Origin: Desulfoferula mesophila | Lineage (GTDB): Bacteria; Desulfobacterota; Desulfarculia; Desulfarculales; Desulfarculaceae | DNA length: 64,000 bases | Assembly: GCF_037076455.1 (NCBI RefSeq) | Contig: NZ_AP028679.1 | Coordinates: 697,501-761,500, forward strand | Direction of reading: 5' to 3' | Shown here: in pieces, positions 47,930 through 59,909 of the stretch | How positions within the stretch are numbered: position 1 is the stretch's first letter | Layout: each line of letters starts with the position of its first letter | Translations under genes and position numbers: made by a program | The notes under the pieces: generated by a model | The model's input: only the letters and a program-made list of their open reading frames with translations | Told to the model about the DNA's origin: nothing | The model's database searches: none

Positions 47930-47934
<5 letters not shown>
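47893..47934 (-). terminator. Terminator overlapping the response-regulator stop codon
   Basis: Minus strand: AGTAGAAGAA, 18-nt loop, TTCTTCTACT, then TTTT. The stem starts at the TAG stop codon of the regulator itself (47930-47932). Confidence 0.65.
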
Positions 47935-49315
<1,381 letters not shown>

Positions 49316-49321
49316 GGTCTC

Positions 49322-51538
49322 CTATCCGTGGGAGTCGTAGCCCCAGTAGGCCGAGGCGGGCAGCTCCATGGTGAACATGGCCCCGCCCCAGCGGCTTTGG
49401 CTCACGCTGAGCTTGCCGCCGTGGTCGCTGACGATGCGGTGGCACAGGCTCAGGCCGATGCCCGAGCCCTCGCGCCGCCCGGTGAAAAAGGGGTCGAACA
49501 CCTTTTCCCGTAGCGCCGGGGGCACGCCGGGGCCGGAGTCGGACACCCGGATGACGATGCGGTCCAGCTCCAGGGAGGAGTCCAGGCCGATCTTCTTCTC
49601 ACCTTCCGCCTCGGCCAGGGCCTGCACCGCGTTGGTGATCAGGTTCATGAGCACCTGCTCCAAAAGCTGGCGGTCGGCATGGGCCAGGGGCAGGCTCTCG
49701 GCCAGGGAGGCCTCCAGGGTCACGCCTGCCTTGCGCAGGGTCACCGCCGAAAGCTCCATCACGTTGCCCACCACCTGGTTCAGATTGAGCAAGGACACCT
49801 TGGGGGCGGTGGGGCGGCTGAAGTCCAGCACCCGCTTGATCACCCCTTCGATGCGCTCGCTGGCCGCGCGCATCTTGGTCAAGATGTCCTCCACCTCGGC
49901 CATGCCCTGGGTCTTGCCGCTCAGGGCGCTGAGGTAGAGGTTGATGCCCGACAGGGGGTTTCTTATCTCGTGGGCGATGCCCGCGGCCACCCGGCCCAGG
50001 GAGGCCATCTTGTCCTGGATGCTCACCAGGCGCTCCAGTTCGCGGGCCTTGGTGATGTCGAGCATGATGATCAGCCGGGCCCGGTGGCCCTGGTATTTGA
50101 TGCCCCCGGCCCGGCAGTGCACCCAGCGGGCGCCTGTGCCCTGACCCTCGGCGGCGGCGAAGCCCAGGTCCAGGTCTTGACCCTCTTCGGCCCGGGGCTC
50201 GCCGCCATTGTCCGGGGCGGTGGCCAGGGCCAGGAATTTGGCCAGGCGGGGATCGCTGGCCGGTCCCAGGGAGGCCAGCTCAAAGGGTGTGTCGGCCGGG
50301 CCCAGAATGCGCCGGGCCTCGGGGTTGCAATACACCGCCCGGCCGCTTTGGACGATGGCGATGCCCACCTGGGCGTTTTCCACCAGGGTGCGGAAGCGGC
50401 GCTCGCTCTCGGCCAGGGCCTGGTCCATCTCCCGGCGGCGGGTGATGTCCTCGTAGGTGCACAGCACCCCCACCACCCGGTCCTGGGGATCGCGCAGGGG
50501 GATGCGGTTGGCGTCCATCCACAGGGTGGCCCCGCCCGGCCCCTCCTGGGGCTCTATGATGTGGTGTTGGGCCCTGCCGGAGTTCATCACCCCTTGCTCG
50601 GCCCGCTGCAACAGGGCCGCCTCGGCCGGGGGCCGGGGCAGCTCGTAGTCGCGCAGGCCCTTGATCTGGGAGGGCTCGGACAGGCTAACGTGGGCCGCGA
50701 AGGCCCGGTTGCAGCCCAGATAGCCGCCCTGGCGGTCCTTCCAGAAGATGAGCTGGGGGATGTTGTCCATGACCAGGCGCAGCATGCCGCGGGAGCGCTC
50801 GGTCTCCACCTCGGCCTGGCGGCGGCGGCGCTCGGCGGCCAGGCTTTGCAGGAGGATGTAGAACTCGATCACCGCCACGATGCCCATGATGCCCAGGCCC
50901 ACCCAGGTGAGCCGCCCGGTGATCACCGCCATCTGCTGGGACACGTCCTCCACGTAGATGCCGGTGCCCACCACCCAGCCCCAGGGCGCGAACTCCTTGA
51001 CAAAGCTGACCTTGGGCACCACGTGGGCCGGGTCGTCCTTCCACTGCCACATGTAGTCCACGTAGCCCTGGCCCCCATGCCGGCGCACCACCCGCACCAC
51101 CTCGGAGAACAGGCGTTTGCCGTGGGGGTCCTGGAATCCGGCCACGTTTCGCCCCTCCAGGTCGGGGCGGTAGGGGTGCATCACCATGCGGGGCTCCAGG
51201 TCGTTGACCCAGAAGTAGTCCTTGCCCTCGGAGCCGTAGCGCATGGCCCTGAGCTGGGCCTTGGCCTGCTCTTGGGCCTGCTGCCGGGTAAGCAGGCCCT
51301 TTTCCTGCCGGGCGTGGTAATAGGCCAGCACGTCCCAGGCGCTCTGGGTGAGCTCGCGGATCATCTCCCGCTTGCGTTCCATGAAGGCGTTTTCCACGGC
51401 GGGCAGGATCAGCGCGAACAGGGCGGCGGAGAACAGCAGGATGGTGAGCACCGATGGCAGCACCAGGCGCAGCAGGGCGCCGGGCCACCAGCGGCCGGGG
51501 ACGGAGCCGGCTGGTTGTGGCGCGTCCAGGGCGAACAT
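49322..51538 (-). CDS. Membrane sensor histidine kinase with Cache and PAS domains
   Basis: 738 residues. Two transmembrane helices (about 24-48 and 207-230) flank a periplasmic single-Cache domain (KDYFWVNDLEPRMVMHP, APWGWVVGTGIYVEDV). Two PAS domains follow at about 250-375 and 380-480, then HisKA with AAGIAHEIRNPLSGI (phospho-histidine) and a HATPase with NLITNAVQAL, DSGPGVP and GSGIGLSLC. Single-Cache domains usually bind small carboxylates. It pairs with the NtrC-type regulator and neighbours an OFA-family carboxylate transporter. Confidence 0.92.
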   Translation of the reverse strand: MFALDAPQPAGSVPGRWWPGALLRLVLPSVLTILLFSAALFALILPAVENAFMERKREMIRELTQSAWDVLAYYHARQEKGLLTRQQAQEQAKAQLRAMRYGSEGKDYFWVNDLEPRMVMHPYRPDLEGRNVAGFQDPHGKRLFSEVVRVVRRHGGQGYVDYMWQWKDDPAHVVPKVSFVKEFAPWGWVVGTGIYVEDVSQQMAVITGRLTWVGLGIMGIVAVIEFYILLQSLAAERRRRQAEVETERSRGMLRLVMDNIPQLIFWKDRQGGYLGCNRAFAAHVSLSEPSQIKGLRDYELPRPPAEAALLQRAEQGVMNSGRAQHHIIEPQEGPGGATLWMDANRIPLRDPQDRVVGVLCTYEDITRRREMDQALAESERRFRTLVENAQVGIAIVQSGRAVYCNPEARRILGPADTPFELASLGPASDPRLAKFLALATAPDNGGEPRAEEGQDLDLGFAAAEGQGTGARWVHCRAGGIKYQGHRARLIIMLDITKARELERLVSIQDKMASLGRVAAGIAHEIRNPLSGINLYLSALSGKTQGMAEVEDILTKMRAASERIEGVIKRVLDFSRPTAPKVSLLNLNQVVGNVMELSAVTLRKAGVTLEASLAESLPLAHADRQLLEQVLMNLITNAVQALAEAEGEKKIGLDSSLELDRIVIRVSDSGPGVPPALREKVFDPFFTGRREGSGIGLSLCHRIVSDHGGKLSVSQSRWGGAMFTMELPASAYWGYDSHG

Positions 51539-51648: not shown

Positions 51649-52701
51649 CTAAATGCGCTCTCTCACCACGTGGAACTCAATGGAAGCGGCGGTCACCCGG
51701 CTGGTGCCGGAGTAGATCAGGCTGACGGTCCACAACCCTTGCAGGCTAAGCACCACCGCCGGGCTCCAGAGGGTGTCCAGGCCCAGGGCCAAGGAAGGCG
51801 CGGCCCCGGCCGTCACCACCGGGAAAACCAGGCTGATCAAAATGCCGTAGGCGATGCCCATCAAGGCCATGATCTGGTAGGCGCTCAGGCGGCCGCCGCC
51901 CCGGTAGTCGGCCCGGAGCGTCTCGGAGACGGCCCGCCACAGGCCGCCGGCGATCAGGCACAGCCACAGGGCCCCGGTAAAGGCCCCGTTGAGATATAGA
52001 TAAAGGGAAACGAGGCCCGCCGCGCCGTTGACCACCAGGGTGAGCATCTGCACCGGAACCACGGCCAGGCCGTCCAGGCCTGCTTCGTAGGAGATCTTCT
52101 TGGTCTCGCCGCTGAACACCAGGTGCCAGTGCTTGAACACCGTCTGCACCCAGTCGGGGCAGGCCACCAGGGCCCGGCCGTAGCAGCAGCCGAAGCTGAG
52201 GCAGGCCAGGCGACCCAGGCCTTCGCCCAGGGTGTAGCAGATCACCAGGGCGGCCAGCACCGGGGTTACCTGCAGGGCCTGGGCGGCCTCGCGGTCCAGG
52301 CAGGCCCGGGCCAGCAGGGTGAGCCAGGGGGCCAGGAGGATGGCGGCGAAGCCAGCCCCGGCCACGGTGAGGGTGGCCGGCTTGTGCTCCACCCAGCGGG
52401 CCACCAGGCGGGCGGCCGGGGCGCTCAGGGAAATGAGCGGCAGCATAACCACCATCACCTGAAAGGGGCTGATGCCCAGCGAGCCCAGCATGATAAGCAT
52501 CAGGGCCGCGGCCAACAGCACCGCGTTGGCGGTGAACATGCCGTAAAAGGTAAGGTTGACCCCCCGCCAGCGGCCGCCGTGGGATTCGCCCACCGGGATG
52601 GCCGCCGCTATCTGCCAGCGCTCGCCGGGCAGGCGGCGGCTCCACCACAACAGCCCCGCGAACAGGGCCCCCAGCCCGGCAATGAAAACGATCTTGTCCA
52701 T
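51649..52701 (-). CDS. Lgt-like (prolipoprotein diacylglyceryl transferase family) membrane protein
   Basis: 350 residues with about eight to nine helices. The segment GEGLGRLACLSFGCCYGR (~158-175) resembles the Lgt G-R-x-G/A-C-F-x3-GCCYG signature of Lgt-like paralogues, and VPVQMLTLVVN matches the later H/P-VQ-L region. It is longer and more divergent than canonical Lgt, so a different phospholipid-dependent transfer is possible. ATG 52701 with GGGAGG 5 nt upstream. It follows psd by 17 nt, so the two and the unknown 814-residue gene form one unit. Confidence 0.65.
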   Translation of the reverse strand: MDKIVFIAGLGALFAGLLWWSRRLPGERWQIAAAIPVGESHGGRWRGVNLTFYGMFTANAVLLAAALMLIMLGSLGISPFQVMVVMLPLISLSAPAARLVARWVEHKPATLTVAGAGFAAILLAPWLTLLARACLDREAAQALQVTPVLAALVICYTLGEGLGRLACLSFGCCYGRALVACPDWVQTVFKHWHLVFSGETKKISYEAGLDGLAVVPVQMLTLVVNGAAGLVSLYLYLNGAFTGALWLCLIAGGLWRAVSETLRADYRGGGRLSAYQIMALMGIAYGILISLVFPVVTAGAAPSLALGLDTLWSPAVVLSLQGLWTVSLIYSGTSRVTAASIEFHVVRERI

Positions 52702-52718
52702 CACTTCCTCCCGGAAGC

Positions 52719-53735
52719 CTAACTGCGGGCCGTGGCCCGGCCGATTTGTTCGCGCACCCTGACCTCGGTTTCCACCAGGGGGCGGCCGAAGCCGGTGGAG
52801 AAGCGGCTCACCGCGTTGGACGAGGTCTGGTTGTCGATGAGGTCCTGGTCAAAGTCCAGGCGGCCCGGCTGGAACAGGAGCACCACCGTGCTGGAGCCGG
52901 GCTTGAACAGGCTCTTGGGCTGGCCCTTTTTGAGCATCAGGCCGGGCATCATGGGCTGGGGGTCGTTGTAATACTCGTCGCTGTAGCGCTGGCGAATCTC
53001 CCCCACCATCAGGGCCACCACCTCCACCACGGCCACCAGGCCCACGCCCGAGCCGCCGATCACATCGGTGTCGATGATGGTGACCATGCGCATGTTCTTG
53101 GAGTAGGGGTCCACCAAGTTGACCACCGCGCCGGGGTTGCAGGAGTGGTAGTGCCCGGCGATGGGGTAAAAGTCCACCACCCGGCCGCTCACCGGGGTGT
53201 GCACGTAGTGGTACTTGTCCGGGGTCAGGCGGCACAGGGCGTAATCGCCGTCCTTGAAGGCCTCCAGCCAGCGGGTCTTGAAGTCGCCCAACAGCTCGTG
53301 GAAGGTGAAGAACTTCTCCTTGATAAACAGCAGGGAGTGGGCCCCGAAGGAGCCCAGGAGCACCCGGGAGTCGGCCGGGGCCACCACCGCCGCCGGGTCC
53401 GGGTTCATGGGCCGGGTATCCCAATAGCGGATCTTGCGGGTGAACAGCTTGCCCGGGGTGTCCAGGGTGTCCGGGTCGTCCAGGCACTCGCTCAGGTCCA
53501 CCCCCCAGGAGCGCACCGCCTCGGTGGTGGCCCTGAGGCGCACCCCCAGCATGGCCTCGAAGTTCAAGAGGCCCAGCAGGCTGGAGCCCCGGGCGCTGGT
53601 GATGGCCTTGAATACGCTGGGTGTTTTTTCGCGTACCTCGGAATAAAGGAAGTTAACCAAACGGTCGGCAAAGAGCCGTTCGGTGCGCACCTGGCGGCTA
53701 TGCCTGTCTATATATTGGTGCGTGGTCAAGCTCAT
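52719..53735 (-). CDS. psd: Phosphatidylserine decarboxylase
   Basis: 338 residues. Pyruvoyl-type decarboxylase features: PADSRVLLGSF, CRLTPDKYHYVHTPVSGRVV, and the self-cleavage region FKPGSSTVVLLFQPG, in which the serine of GSST becomes the pyruvoyl group. Makes phosphatidylethanolamine. The N-terminal ~120 residues are longer than in short proteobacterial Psd proteins. ATG 53735 has GGAG 7 nt upstream and lies inside the 3' end of the upstream gene (38-bp overlap). Confidence 0.9.
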   Translation of the reverse strand: MSLTTHQYIDRHSRQVRTERLFADRLVNFLYSEVREKTPSVFKAITSARGSSLLGLLNFEAMLGVRLRATTEAVRSWGVDLSECLDDPDTLDTPGKLFTRKIRYWDTRPMNPDPAAVVAPADSRVLLGSFGAHSLLFIKEKFFTFHELLGDFKTRWLEAFKDGDYALCRLTPDKYHYVHTPVSGRVVDFYPIAGHYHSCNPGAVVNLVDPYSKNMRMVTIIDTDVIGGSGVGLVAVVEVVALMVGEIRQRYSDEYYNDPQPMMPGLMLKKGQPKSLFKPGSSTVVLLFQPGRLDFDQDLIDNQTSSNAVSRFSTGFGRPLVETEVRVREQIGRATARS

Positions 53736-56142
53736 GATTGGGCTCCATGGACGCCGCGCCCGCCGGTGATTCCTGTCCGGGCCGCTCCTGAAAATCGATA
53801 ACCGTTAAAAGCAAATTGACTAGCAGGGATACCTCCTCGGCCCCGGCCCGCCCGTCCAAGACCGGCTCCTTGAGCCCGGCCAGCAGGGCCCGGGGCTCCC
53901 GTCCGCCCAGGATGCGTCCCAGGGCCCGGCGGGAGGAGGGATGGTTTTCCAGGGCCTTGAGGCCCCGGCCGCTCATATCTTGCTCCAGCACCCGCCAGGC
54001 CTCGCCCAGATGGCGGCGCCTGAGGCCGGTGCGGTAATAGTCTTCCGTCGCCTGGTTGAAGCGGCGGGCGTCGGCCCGAAGGGCGTCCCCCGCCCCCAGT
54101 TCGCTCAGGATGCCGTGGGTGAGCCGGCCCAGGGCCGAGGCCTGCCCCGGACGGGCCAGGCGTTCTTCCAGGTCTGCCAGGGTGTCGCCCAGGCCCAGGC
54201 ACTCGATGATCTCCGCGGCCTCCCGCCGGATGAAGCGCAGGCAGCCCAGGTGGTATTGGGCCAGCTTGACCCGCAGGTAGCCGGGGTAGCGGCGGCTGGG
54301 GCGGGTCTCGGCGGTGTCCTTGAGAATGGCCTTGAGCAGCAGGTTGGGGGTGTCCTGGCGCACGAAGAAGGTGGGCAGGCCGATGGCCGCGGCAAAAAAT
54401 ATCTGGCGCCGCTCGCTCTCCACCACGGGGTCGTCGGGCACCTGGGCGTGGCTCAGGCGGCCCCGGGCGATCAGGGCGAAGGCCAGCGCCGTGACCAGGC
54501 GCTGCATATCCACCGCCCCGGCCAGATCCCGCTCCAGGCTGTAGAAAAGGCTGTAGTGGCGGCCCTCGAAACCGGCGAAGCCGTGGGTGGCCACCTCCCG
54601 CTGGCGGTGCAGCATATAAAGGGGCATGGAGGGATCGAACACCCCCAGGGAGGCCAGATCCGCCTTGAAACGCTGGTGGTTGCCCAGGCGGCCGTCCAGG
54701 GCCGGACTCTGCTTGGTGCTCATCAGGCACACCAGGTAGTCCATGAGCCGAAAGTCGGGCAGGCAATCGCCCCTGAGGCCGAAAAGCTTGGCCAGGGGCT
54801 GGTCCAGCCAGGGGGGGCCGAAAGGGGTGAGCCGAAGCCCCAGGGGCCGCACCTTGAGGTGGGCCTTTTTGCGCCAGCGCCGCCAGATCATGCGCAGATG
54901 GGTGTAGTCCAGCTCAAAGGGCAGGAAGCTGAGCACCTTCTCCGGGTGGAAGTCGGCAAAGGCCAGGCGATAGGGCGCGGCGCTGTAGGTGCCCACGAAC
55001 AGGGGCAGGAAGTGCTCCACGCACTTGGTGACCAGGTCGCCCAAATATTTTTCGTGGGCTGGCTGCAGGGCGCCCTGGGCCACGGCCCGGCTCAGCCTTT
55101 GGCTGCCCAGGCTCACGTGGGTGCCGTTGTTGGCCAGGCTGATGTTGCTGGCGCTGGGCAGGGTCACCAGATTGTTCAGGATGATGCCCGCCTCCTTGAG
55201 GCGGTGCAGGCCGTTGAACTGGGCCCGCGAGAGCACCTGATGGCACAGGTGCATGTAGCGCTGCTTGTCCTCGCCCTGGTTCCAGCCCGACAGGCAGGGG
55301 TTCATGAACAGTTCGCGATAAAAGGCGTCGGAGATGCACTGGGAGAGCTGCTTCTGGCGCACCGGGGGGTGTGGCGAGAAGTACACCGCCACCCTTTGGC
55401 CGCTTTCCTCCAGGCCCAGGCGGGTCTCGGCGTGGCGGGCCAGGAGGTGGGTGAGCAGGTAGCGGCGGCAGGTCTCGGCCGCCGCCTGGCTTCCCGCGCC
55501 GGGGGCTTCGGGACGGCTCAGGTGGAAGGAGAAGGTCTCGGGCGAGGTGTTGTCGGACAGATAGTGCTCGGCCAGGGCCCGGCTGCGTCCCCGCACCCGG
55601 GGCGGCAGTTCGTCCCCCCGGCCCAGGACGTCCACCAGGGCCAGCTTGAGCAGATAGCTCACCGGCAGGCGCAGGCGGCCGCCGGGGCAGGAAAAGCGCC
55701 CCGCGTCGGAGCGCAGGGAGCCCAGGGGCTGCTTTTTGTCGGCCAACAGGTCGCTTTCCCAGGCCTGGCGGGCCAGGGGCGAGAGCCGCCTGGGGTCCAG
55801 GCGCACCCAGGAGTTTTCCCAGAGGTTGCGGGGGTTGGCCTGCAGCCACTCTTCCAGTTCGTTGATGATCCGCCGGGGCATCTCCCCCGAGCGCTCACGC
55901 TTGACCATGTTGCGGTAGTAGTTGGATTCCACGATGGAGCGGGGCAGGTCCACCGCCTCGGCGGAGCCCAGCACCCCGGCCTGCAACTCGTTTTCGCAGC
56001 CGCAGGTGGCGTCGCCCAGGGAAAAGGGCAGGCTGGCGGCCAGGGCCTCGGGCGTGTCGAGCGCCACTCCGGCCCGGCGCAGCAATTCGGCCGGGCTGTG
56101 GCCGCCGGGATAGGGCCAACCGTGCAGGGGAATGGGGCTCAC
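53698..56142 (-). CDS. Large conserved-looking protein of unknown function upstream of psd
   Basis: 814 residues; not recognised. No signal peptide, membrane helix or nucleotide-binding motif is evident. Features that look conserved rather than random: DATCGCENELQ (44-54), IVESNYYRNMVKRE, ENSWVRLDPRRLSPLA, VRQKQLSQCISDAFYRELF, WNQGEDKQRYMHLCHQ, and the Asn-rich SNISLANNGTHVSLGSQRLS. Many Arg/His residues and a C-terminal helical third. GTG start at 56142 with AAGGAGA about 10 nt upstream. Its last 38 bp overlap psd, which points to coupled synthesis with phosphatidylserine decarboxylase and the Lgt-like protein. Confidence 0.8.
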   Translation of the reverse strand: MSPIPLHGWPYPGGHSPAELLRRAGVALDTPEALAASLPFSLGDATCGCENELQAGVLGSAEAVDLPRSIVESNYYRNMVKRERSGEMPRRIINELEEWLQANPRNLWENSWVRLDPRRLSPLARQAWESDLLADKKQPLGSLRSDAGRFSCPGGRLRLPVSYLLKLALVDVLGRGDELPPRVRGRSRALAEHYLSDNTSPETFSFHLSRPEAPGAGSQAAAETCRRYLLTHLLARHAETRLGLEESGQRVAVYFSPHPPVRQKQLSQCISDAFYRELFMNPCLSGWNQGEDKQRYMHLCHQVLSRAQFNGLHRLKEAGIILNNLVTLPSASNISLANNGTHVSLGSQRLSRAVAQGALQPAHEKYLGDLVTKCVEHFLPLFVGTYSAAPYRLAFADFHPEKVLSFLPFELDYTHLRMIWRRWRKKAHLKVRPLGLRLTPFGPPWLDQPLAKLFGLRGDCLPDFRLMDYLVCLMSTKQSPALDGRLGNHQRFKADLASLGVFDPSMPLYMLHRQREVATHGFAGFEGRHYSLFYSLERDLAGAVDMQRLVTALAFALIARGRLSHAQVPDDPVVESERRQIFFAAAIGLPTFFVRQDTPNLLLKAILKDTAETRPSRRYPGYLRVKLAQYHLGCLRFIRREAAEIIECLGLGDTLADLEERLARPGQASALGRLTHGILSELGAGDALRADARRFNQATEDYYRTGLRRRHLGEAWRVLEQDMSGRGLKALENHPSSRRALGRILGGREPRALLAGLKEPVLDGRAGAEEVSLLVNLLLTVIDFQERPGQESPAGAASMEPNHELDHAPIYRQA

Positions 56143-58631: not shown

Positions 58632-59909
58632 ATGGCAAGTGAACACGAGGCCATGTGGCGGGAGTTGGGCCTGGACCTGGCCGCCCACGACCAGTTGTTG
58701 CAGGTTTTGGGCGATGGCTACGGTCAGATCTTCCTTTCCCAACAAGAGCGCCCCGAGGGCATGGAGTACTTCAACTTCGTGATGAGCGAGGTGCACGGCC
58801 TGCGCATCAAGGAACTGGTGGACGGCAAGGCCGAAGGCAAGAAGGTCATCGGCTCCTTCTGTGTCTTCGTGCCCGAGGAGATCGTGGTGGCCGCCGACGC
58901 CACCCTGGTGGGGCTGTGCACCGGGGCCGACTTTGCCACCGAACTGGTGGACCAGGTTTTGCCCCGCAACACCTGCGCCCTGATCAAGAGCGCCTTCGGC
59001 TTCAAGCTGGGCAAGGTCTGCCCCTACATGGAGTCGGCGGACATGATCGTGGGTGAGAACACCTGCGACGGCAAGAAGAAATCCTACGAGACCCTGGGCA
59101 CTTTGGTGCCCAACCTCTACGTCATGGACCTGCCCCAGGTGAAGTCTTCCGAGGGCCGCGCCCTGTTGGCCGCCGAGTACGAGCGCTTTAAGCAGGCGGT
59201 GGAGGAACTGACCGGCAAGGAGATCACCGCCGAGCGCCTGGCCCATGGCATCCAGGTCGTCAACGCCAAGCGTGAGGCCCTGCACCGGCTCTACAAGCTG
59301 CGCGCCGCCGACCCGGCCCCCATCTCCGGGCTGGACGCCCTGTTGATCAACCAGGTGTCCTTCTACGACGATCCGGTGCGCTTCACCCAATCGGTGCACA
59401 AGATCTGCGACGAGTTGGAAGCGCGCATCGCGGCGGGCCAGGGGGTGGCCCCCCAGGGAACCCCACGCCTGCTGTTCTCCGGCTGTCCCATGGCCGTGCC
59501 CAACTGGAAGCTGCCCTGGGTGGTGGAAAGCTCCGGCGCGGTGGTGGTGGGCGAGGAGTCCTGTGTCGGCGAGCGCGGCACCCGCAATCTGACCGAGCCC
59601 CAGGGCCAGGACCTGGCCTCGATGATGGACGCCATCGTGGAGCGCTACTGGAAAATCGATTGCGCGGTGTTCACCCCCAACCCCGACCGCCAGGAGCACG
59701 TCAAGCAGATGGCCGCCGACTACAAGGCCCAGGGGGTGATCCACTACGGCCTGCAGTTCTGCCAGCCCTATCAGATGGAAGCCCTGCCCCTGGAGAAGAA
59801 CCTGGAGGCCGGCGGCCTGCCGGTTTTGCGGGTGGATACCGACTACGGCATGGAAGACGTGGAACAACTCAAGACCAGGGTGGAAGCCTTCCTGGAAATG
59901 CTCGCCTGA
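58632..59909 (+). CDS. Double-cubane cluster protein / 2-hydroxyacyl-CoA dehydratase D-family protein (YjiM-like)
   Basis: 425 residues, a single-subunit member of the HgdB/FldC/BcrC superfamily. The signature CPYMESADMIVGENTCDGKK (130-149) is that of the YjiM/double-cubane branch and not of the heterodimeric dehydratases. Further cysteines at 77, 96 and 115, and in SGCPMAVPNW, GEESCVGERG and QFCQPYQME, can hold an [8Fe-9S] double cubane or [4Fe-4S] cluster. Such proteins need an ATP-driven reductase (YjiL/HgdC-like) to supply low-potential electrons; none is encoded nearby. ATG 58632 has AGGAG 8 nt upstream. The physiological substrate of this branch is not known. Confidence 0.83.
   Translation: MASEHEAMWRELGLDLAAHDQLLQVLGDGYGQIFLSQQERPEGMEYFNFVMSEVHGLRIKELVDGKAEGKKVIGSFCVFVPEEIVVAADATLVGLCTGADFATELVDQVLPRNTCALIKSAFGFKLGKVCPYMESADMIVGENTCDGKKKSYETLGTLVPNLYVMDLPQVKSSEGRALLAAEYERFKQAVEELTGKEITAERLAHGIQVVNAKREALHRLYKLRAADPAPISGLDALLINQVSFYDDPVRFTQSVHKICDELEARIAAGQGVAPQGTPRLLFSGCPMAVPNWKLPWVVESSGAVVVGEESCVGERGTRNLTEPQGQDLASMMDAIVERYWKIDCAVFTPNPDRQEHVKQMAADYKAQGVIHYGLQFCQPYQMEALPLEKNLEAGGLPVLRVDTDYGMEDVEQLKTRVEAFLEMLA

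What the first reader, a model, noticed from the sequence alone, without database searches (positions are those of the whole stretch)
53698..56142. 814-residue unknown protein overlapping psd
A large soluble-looking protein with no recognised domain precedes phosphatidylserine decarboxylase with a 38-bp overlap, followed by an Lgt-like membrane protein. The conserved-looking cysteine/asparagine/histidine blocks suggest an enzyme. The trio could be an undescribed phospholipid-modification or lipid-attachment system.
Basis: partly seen in the sequence, partly recalled or inferred. Interest (0 to 1): 0.68.

Follow-up and report, generated by a model that had tools for sequence, protein, structure and literature searches.

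The report
Three-gene phosphate-linked lipid module
An unknown 814-residue protein is locked together with two lipid-enzyme relatives in a conserved three-gene unit of anaerobic bacteria that often sits beside phosphate-starvation genes, so it probably helps remake the membrane when phosphate is scarce.

Summary
The 814-aa protein (BIG) matches no Pfam or NCBIfam family and no solved structure, and overlaps psd by 38 bp; an Lgt-like gene follows. The trio is real and unusually tight: BIG, Psd-like and Lgt-like lie in the same order on one strand in 49 of 50 loci (the exception is cut by a contig end). Among 98 relatives, strong Psd-like and Lgt-like orthologues occur in exactly the same 20 genomes; BIG is in 18, and the other two contigs end at psd. 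BIG is highly conserved (114 invariant columns in 49 sequences) and present in 43 of 395 genomes of the phylum. Psd-like keeps the catalytic Asp/His/His/Ser. Lgt-like keeps the diacylglyceryl-transfer Arg/Arg/Glu/Arg network but has lost other essential Lgt residues, two of them replaced by cysteine. Canonical psd and lgt genes exist elsewhere in the genome. New: neighbours are enriched in phosphate-starvation genes (Pst/PhoU in 7 of 50 loci, seven families, against 0 of 80 controls). Best reading: a phosphate-limitation lipid-remodelling module that moves diacylglycerol onto a phosphorus-free head group and decarboxylates it. The head group and BIG's reaction are unknown; BIG's fold could not be predicted.

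The parts
53698..56142 (-). BIG: 814-aa protein of an unassigned family, first gene of the trio
52719..53735 (-). Psd-like gene, 338 aa, PF02666; second gene
51649..52704 (-). Lgt-like membrane protein, 351 aa, PF01790; third gene
53698..53735 (-). 38-bp overlap of BIG and psd; the two ORFs overlap in 44 of 49 loci (lengths depend on the first-start rule, so they are upper bounds)
55981..56004 (-). BIG block CGCENELQ (residues 47-54); G48, E50 and E52 invariant
55102..55131 (-). BIG block NNGTHVSLGS (residues 338-347); N338, N339, G340, H342, S347 invariant
52887..52901 (-). Psd-like PGSST (residues 279-283), aligned with the E. coli LGST self-cleavage motif with one extra residue
52177..52215 (-). 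Lgt-like GRLACLSFGCCYG (residues 164-176): R165 = E. coli R143; C168, C173, C174 stand at N146, E151, L152
51913..51936 (-). Lgt-like residues 257-264: R257, E261, R264 = E. coli R239, E243, R246

Best explanation
The trio is a lipid-remodelling module used when phosphate is limiting. SHOWN by sequence: fixed three-gene linkage; Psd-like and Lgt-like are extra paralogues that keep catalytic residues; phosphate-starvation and phosphorus-free-lipid genes are enriched next to it. INFERRED: the Lgt-like enzyme takes the diacylglyceryl group from phosphatidylglycerol, releasing glycerol phosphate (so phosphorus is recovered), and places it on a phosphorus-free amino-acid-like acceptor. Psd-like then decarboxylates this phosphatidylserine analogue to an amine lipid that can stand in for phosphatidylethanolamine. 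BIG, a cytosolic protein, makes or activates the acceptor or finishes the head group. Which acceptor, and which reaction BIG performs, is unknown.
For: Linkage: same order and strand in 49 of 50 loci; strong orthologues of Psd-like and Lgt-like in the same 20 of 98 genomes, BIG in 18 of these and the other two cut by contig ends; pairwise distances of the three proteins correlate, r 0.68-0.79, 0 of 999 permutations as high for each pair (43 loci). Not housekeeping: 19 of 20 trio genomes have a second PF02666 gene, against 1 of 78 non-trio genomes with two; the own genome has a canonical short psd next to an ORF that I read as pssA and a canonical lgt. Catalysis: Psd-like keeps D90, H144, H147 in 49 of 49 and S254 in 48 of 49; Lgt-like keeps R143, R239, E243, R246 in 48 of 49, residues that passages of PMC4728403 describe as intolerant to mutation. 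Phosphate context: with E. coli Pst/PhoU queries, 7 of 50 trio loci against 0 of 80 control loci (p=0.00095), in seven different families. Pfam confirms, near the trio, PhoU, PBP_like_2 (PstS-type), PhoH, alkaline phosphatase, polyphosphate kinase, diacylglycerol kinases, PAP2, MGDG_synth, GT4 glycosyltransferases, metallophosphoesterase and Zn-dependent phospholipase C. In L058 a PHP-GT4-type gene lies between psd and lgt-like; in L089 a metallophosphoesterase and a GT4 follow the trio, like the plcP-agt order described in PMC4796936 (passages).
Against: 33 of 50 loci, the window's included, show none of the 13 phosphate/lipid markers. The E. coli Pho-box consensus is not enriched upstream of BIG. 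Pst was picked after seeing the loci, and the other markers were taken from trio loci themselves, so the 17 of 50 against 0 of 80 figure is biased. Lgt-like lacks H103 and E151, both essential in E. coli Lgt. Psd-like has R at the phosphate-contacting Y137, which passages of PMC7952604 give as a normal 15% variant, so it does not argue for a phosphorus-free substrate. BIG has no fold or reaction assigned (the structure job gave pLDDT 34).
Confidence: 0.45

Rival explanations
1. Protein lipidation: the Lgt-like protein attaches diacylglycerol to a cysteine of a particular protein or peptide, BIG is the partner or substrate, and Psd-like adjusts the lipid supply.
For: Lgt's known acceptor is a protein cysteine; the R143/R239/E243/R246 network is kept; BIG has invariant cysteines.
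Against: H103, Y26, N146 and E151 are not kept; a canonical Lgt exists in the genome; no small acceptor gene is conserved next to the trio; a decarboxylase has no clear role.
Confidence: 0.15
2. Conditional phosphatidylethanolamine route: Psd-like is just a second phosphatidylserine decarboxylase, and BIG and Lgt-like tune or turn over phospholipids to release phosphate.
For: All catalytic Psd residues are kept, and R at position 137 occurs in ordinary PSDs.
Against: A canonical psd is already present in 19 of 20 trio genomes, and strict linkage with two other genes suggests a dedicated substrate.
Confidence: 0.2
3. BIG is a glutamine-synthetase/gamma-glutamyl-cysteine-ligase-fold amidoligase that builds an amide in the head group.
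For: By eye, G.E.E near the N terminus and NNGTH resemble motifs of that fold (recalled); one of 49 members hits PF00217 at 0.048 (the member and place).
Against: Profile comparison with E. coli GshA, YbdK and 26 glutamine synthetases gives E 0.13-0.43, about what psd and lgt give (0.36 and 0.49).
Confidence: 0.08
4. The phosphate neighbourhood is chance or indirect, and the trio makes a lipid for another purpose (for example an ether lipid or a stress lipid).
For: The window locus itself is flanked by a CoA ligase and a two-component pair; neighbours vary between genomes.
Against: Pst/PhoU loci beside the trio in seven families, 0 of 80 controls.
Confidence: 0.2

Closest known systems
Phosphatidylserine decarboxylase (PF02666)
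   Same: Family match, catalytic Asp/His/His/Ser kept
   Different: PGSST instead of LGST, a separate orthologous group, locked to BIG and Lgt-like, canonical copy elsewhere
Prolipoprotein diacylglyceryl transferase Lgt (PF01790)
   Same: Weak but above-cut-off match; R143/R239/E243/R246 network kept
   Different: H103, Y26, N146, E151 lost; three invariant Cys in the signature motif; canonical copy elsewhere
plcP-agt and ornithine-lipid remodelling under phosphate limitation (PMC4796936, PMC5193443; passages read)
   Same: Phosphate-linked lipid genes next to glycosyltransferases and phosphatases
   Different: No BIG, Psd-like or Lgt-like component is mentioned in the passages seen; a different chemistry is implied

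Membership tests
Phosphatidylserine decarboxylase | PF02666 match over cut-off | tested here: met
   130.1 bits against 22
Phosphatidylserine decarboxylase | Asp90, His144, His147, Ser254 (E. coli numbering) | tested here: met
   49, 49, 49 and 48 of 49
Phosphatidylserine decarboxylase | LGST self-cleavage motif | tested here: inconclusive
   PGSST with one extra residue
Phosphatidylserine decarboxylase | Decarboxylates phosphatidylserine | not testable with these tools
   needs an enzyme assay
Lgt | PF01790 match over cut-off | tested here: met
   33.1 bits against 24.9
Lgt | R143, R239, E243, R246 network | tested here: met
   48 of 49 each
Lgt | H103 and signature motif GRLGNFINGELWG with N146 and E151 | tested here: not met
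   H103 is mostly V/A/I; N146 and E151 are Cys
Lgt | Transfers diacylglyceryl to a lipobox cysteine | not testable with these tools
   needs an enzyme assay
Phosphate-limitation lipid remodelling operon | Phosphate-regulon or phosphorus-free-lipid genes adjoining | tested here: met
   Pst/PhoU 7 of 50 against 0 of 80; not in the window locus itself
Phosphate-limitation lipid remodelling operon | Pho box upstream | tested here: not met
   E. coli consensus not enriched; the local consensus is unknown
Phosphate-limitation lipid remodelling operon | Induction by low phosphate, phosphorus-free product | not testable with these tools
   needs culture and lipidomics
Glutamine-synthetase / GCS fold | Profile similarity of BIG | tested here: not met
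   E 0.13-0.43

The most novel reading that the evidence does not exclude
Lgt-type chemistry used for bulk membrane lipid synthesis: under phosphate starvation the Lgt-like enzyme transfers diacylglycerol from phosphatidylglycerol to a free amino-acid thiol (or hydroxyl) prepared by BIG, and Psd-like decarboxylates it. This would give a phosphorus-free, thioether- or ether-linked phosphatidylethanolamine analogue, a lipid class not known to me, with the phosphorus recovered as glycerol phosphate.
Probability: 0.17. Interest if true: 0.9.

Novelty: new variant of a known kind. Interest (0 to 1): 0.66.

Why it matters
Replacement of phospholipids in anoxic, phosphate-poor settings is known from glycolipids and ornithine lipids, but two lipids in a phosphate-limited sulfate reducer remained unidentified (passages of PMC5193443; that species was not tested for the trio here). 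A tight three-gene module with a large unassigned protein gives a direct genetic handle on a possible new lipid and lipid biomarker, and a first functional context for a protein family with no annotation.

Tried and rejected
Profile comparisons with GshA, YbdK and glutamine synthetases were negative; no GCS2 family member was found in 60 relatives. Viral contigs, plasmids and phages hold no relative of BIG. The one genome-contig scan, with a single protein, found only one contig (83% identical), so presence outside this phylum is untested. The E. coli Pho-box scan upstream of BIG was negative. A profile search for distant BIG relatives in 395 genomes of the phylum added only two fragments. I considered a fusion of psd and lgt-like from long ORFs in L073 and L076 and took them for frame artefacts; not followed further. 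Literature: searches showed no paper on this trio in their listings; only open-licence PMC papers are searched.

Full report
Observation. The window carries three minus-strand genes in a row: BIG (53698..56142, 814 aa), psd-like (52719..53735, 338 aa) and lgt-like (51649..52704, 351 aa); BIG and psd share 38 bp. BIG has no family in Pfam, NCBIfam or PDB sequences at E<=1. Scanning 49 members one by one gives only isolated single-member hits, and a profile of the 49 gives no credible PDB match. It has no transmembrane stretch.

Where it lies. The window is part of a 4.48-Mb single-contig genome. One relative's contig is 3,655,731 bases, which I recall as the size of Desulfarculus baarsii; species names are otherwise hidden, and the phylum name (Desulfobacterota) is my inference, helped by the MAG title of L002.

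Distribution. BIG is found in 18 of 98 relatives and in 43 of 395 genomes of the phylum, 38 of 245 genera, always as one copy except one gene split over two contigs (G018). A profile search of the same 395 genomes adds only a piece at a contig end (G064) and a 28-codon relic (G418). The family is compact: 114 columns are invariant in 49 sequences, and the lowest pairwise identity among 43 members is 41%.

Linkage. In 49 of 50 loci (window included) psd-like and lgt-like follow BIG on the same strand; L082 ends inside the region. Psd-like directly follows BIG in 48 of these 49; L059 has a 2.5-kb gap. Other genes lie between psd-like and lgt-like in a few loci (L058, L068, L078, L080, L081, L088). 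Strong orthologues of Psd-like (E<1e-69) and Lgt-like (E<1e-73) occur in the same 20 of 98 genomes. BIG is in 18 of these; in G015 and G017 the contig ends just beyond psd. Distances of the three proteins correlate (r 0.70, 0.79, 0.68), as for a unit that travels together. Any genes inherited together would correlate, so this is supporting evidence only.

Extra paralogues. PF02666 genes number two or more in 19 of the 20 trio genomes, but in 1 of the 78 others (G015 has only the trio copy). The own genome's second psd is short and adjoins an ORF that I read as pssA. The own genome also has a canonical lgt at 1.8e-57 beside the trio's weak 4.6e-8 match.

Catalytic residues. Aligned with E. coli, Psd-like keeps D90, H144 and H147 (49 of 49) and S254 (48 of 49); LGST becomes PGSST; Y137 is R in all 49. 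Passages of PMC7952604 name these residues and give R137 as a 15% natural variant. Lgt-like keeps R143, R239, E243 and R246 (48 of 49 each). At Y235 the commonest residue is T (34 of 49), a change that is partly active in E. coli. H103, Y26, N146 and E151 are replaced, N146 and E151 by Cys. Passages of PMC4728403 tie the kept residues to diacylglyceryl transfer and E151 to phosphatidylglycerol selection, and report that H103 and E151 mutants are inactive. So Lgt-like may still move diacylglycerol, but not as a standard Lgt.

Neighbourhood. I compared 50 trio loci with 80 control stretches of 19 kb from the same set of genomes. E. coli Pst/PhoU queries hit 7 of 50 trio loci and 0 of 80 controls (p=0.00095). 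The seven loci belong to seven families. Other markers used queries taken from trio loci and are biased: PHP-GT4-type 4 of 50 and 0 of 80, PIN-PhoH 4 and 0, LMW-phosphatase/ArsC-like 6 and 2; at least one of 13 markers in 17 of 50 and 0 of 80. I chose 30 neighbours for Pfam; 28 matched a family. A scan of 100 same-strand neighbours lists GT4, DUF2062, PhoH, phosphonate-binding protein and diacylglycerol kinase among its 25 commonest families; none of these is in the top 25 of 87 control genes. The names PHP, Agt, PlcP, PhnX and PhnA are my reading; Pfam gave GT4, metallophosphoesterase, HAD hydrolase and phosphodiesterase. The window locus itself shows none of the 13 markers.

Mechanism. Shown: linkage, conservation, retained residues, phosphate context in part of the loci. 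Inferred: phosphate-limitation lipid remodelling in which Lgt-like moves diacylglycerol to a phosphorus-free acceptor, Psd-like decarboxylates it, and BIG prepares or finishes the head group.

Verdict. A real conserved module, not described in any paper listed by searches, probably in lipid remodelling. The general reading is fairly likely; the exact chemistry is open.

Noticed in passing
L181:8061-8150: A 28-codon relic of BIG's conserved core in a genome without the trio, same genus label as the carrier L065; suggests loss.
   Followed up: partly
L088, between psd-like and lgt-like: A 133-aa ORF that looks like a transposase piece lies between the genes, and the lgt-like ORF is short (286 aa); possibly interrupted.
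   Followed up: no
L068, L080, L081 (between psd-like and lgt-like), L065 (after): A small protein inserted in or after the trio; Pfam finds dksA/traR zinc fingers in 4 of 100 neighbours.
   Followed up: no
L058, L061, L071, directly after lgt-like: A DUF2062 membrane protein follows the trio in three loci.
   Followed up: partly
window 47930-51538, minus strand: A sensor kinase and an NtrC-type regulator (names from reading the ORFs) lie directly downstream of lgt-like on the same strand.
   Followed up: no
window 58632-59909, plus strand: An ORF that I read as a 2-hydroxyacyl-CoA dehydratase-type subunit lies about 2.5 kb from BIG; not tested.
   Followed up: no
L059, 2.5 kb between BIG and psd-like: The only locus with a gap between BIG and psd-like; it holds two reverse ORFs.
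   Followed up: no
neighbours in 10 loci (cluster c10): GGDEF/EAL signalling proteins recur beside the trio.
   Followed up: no
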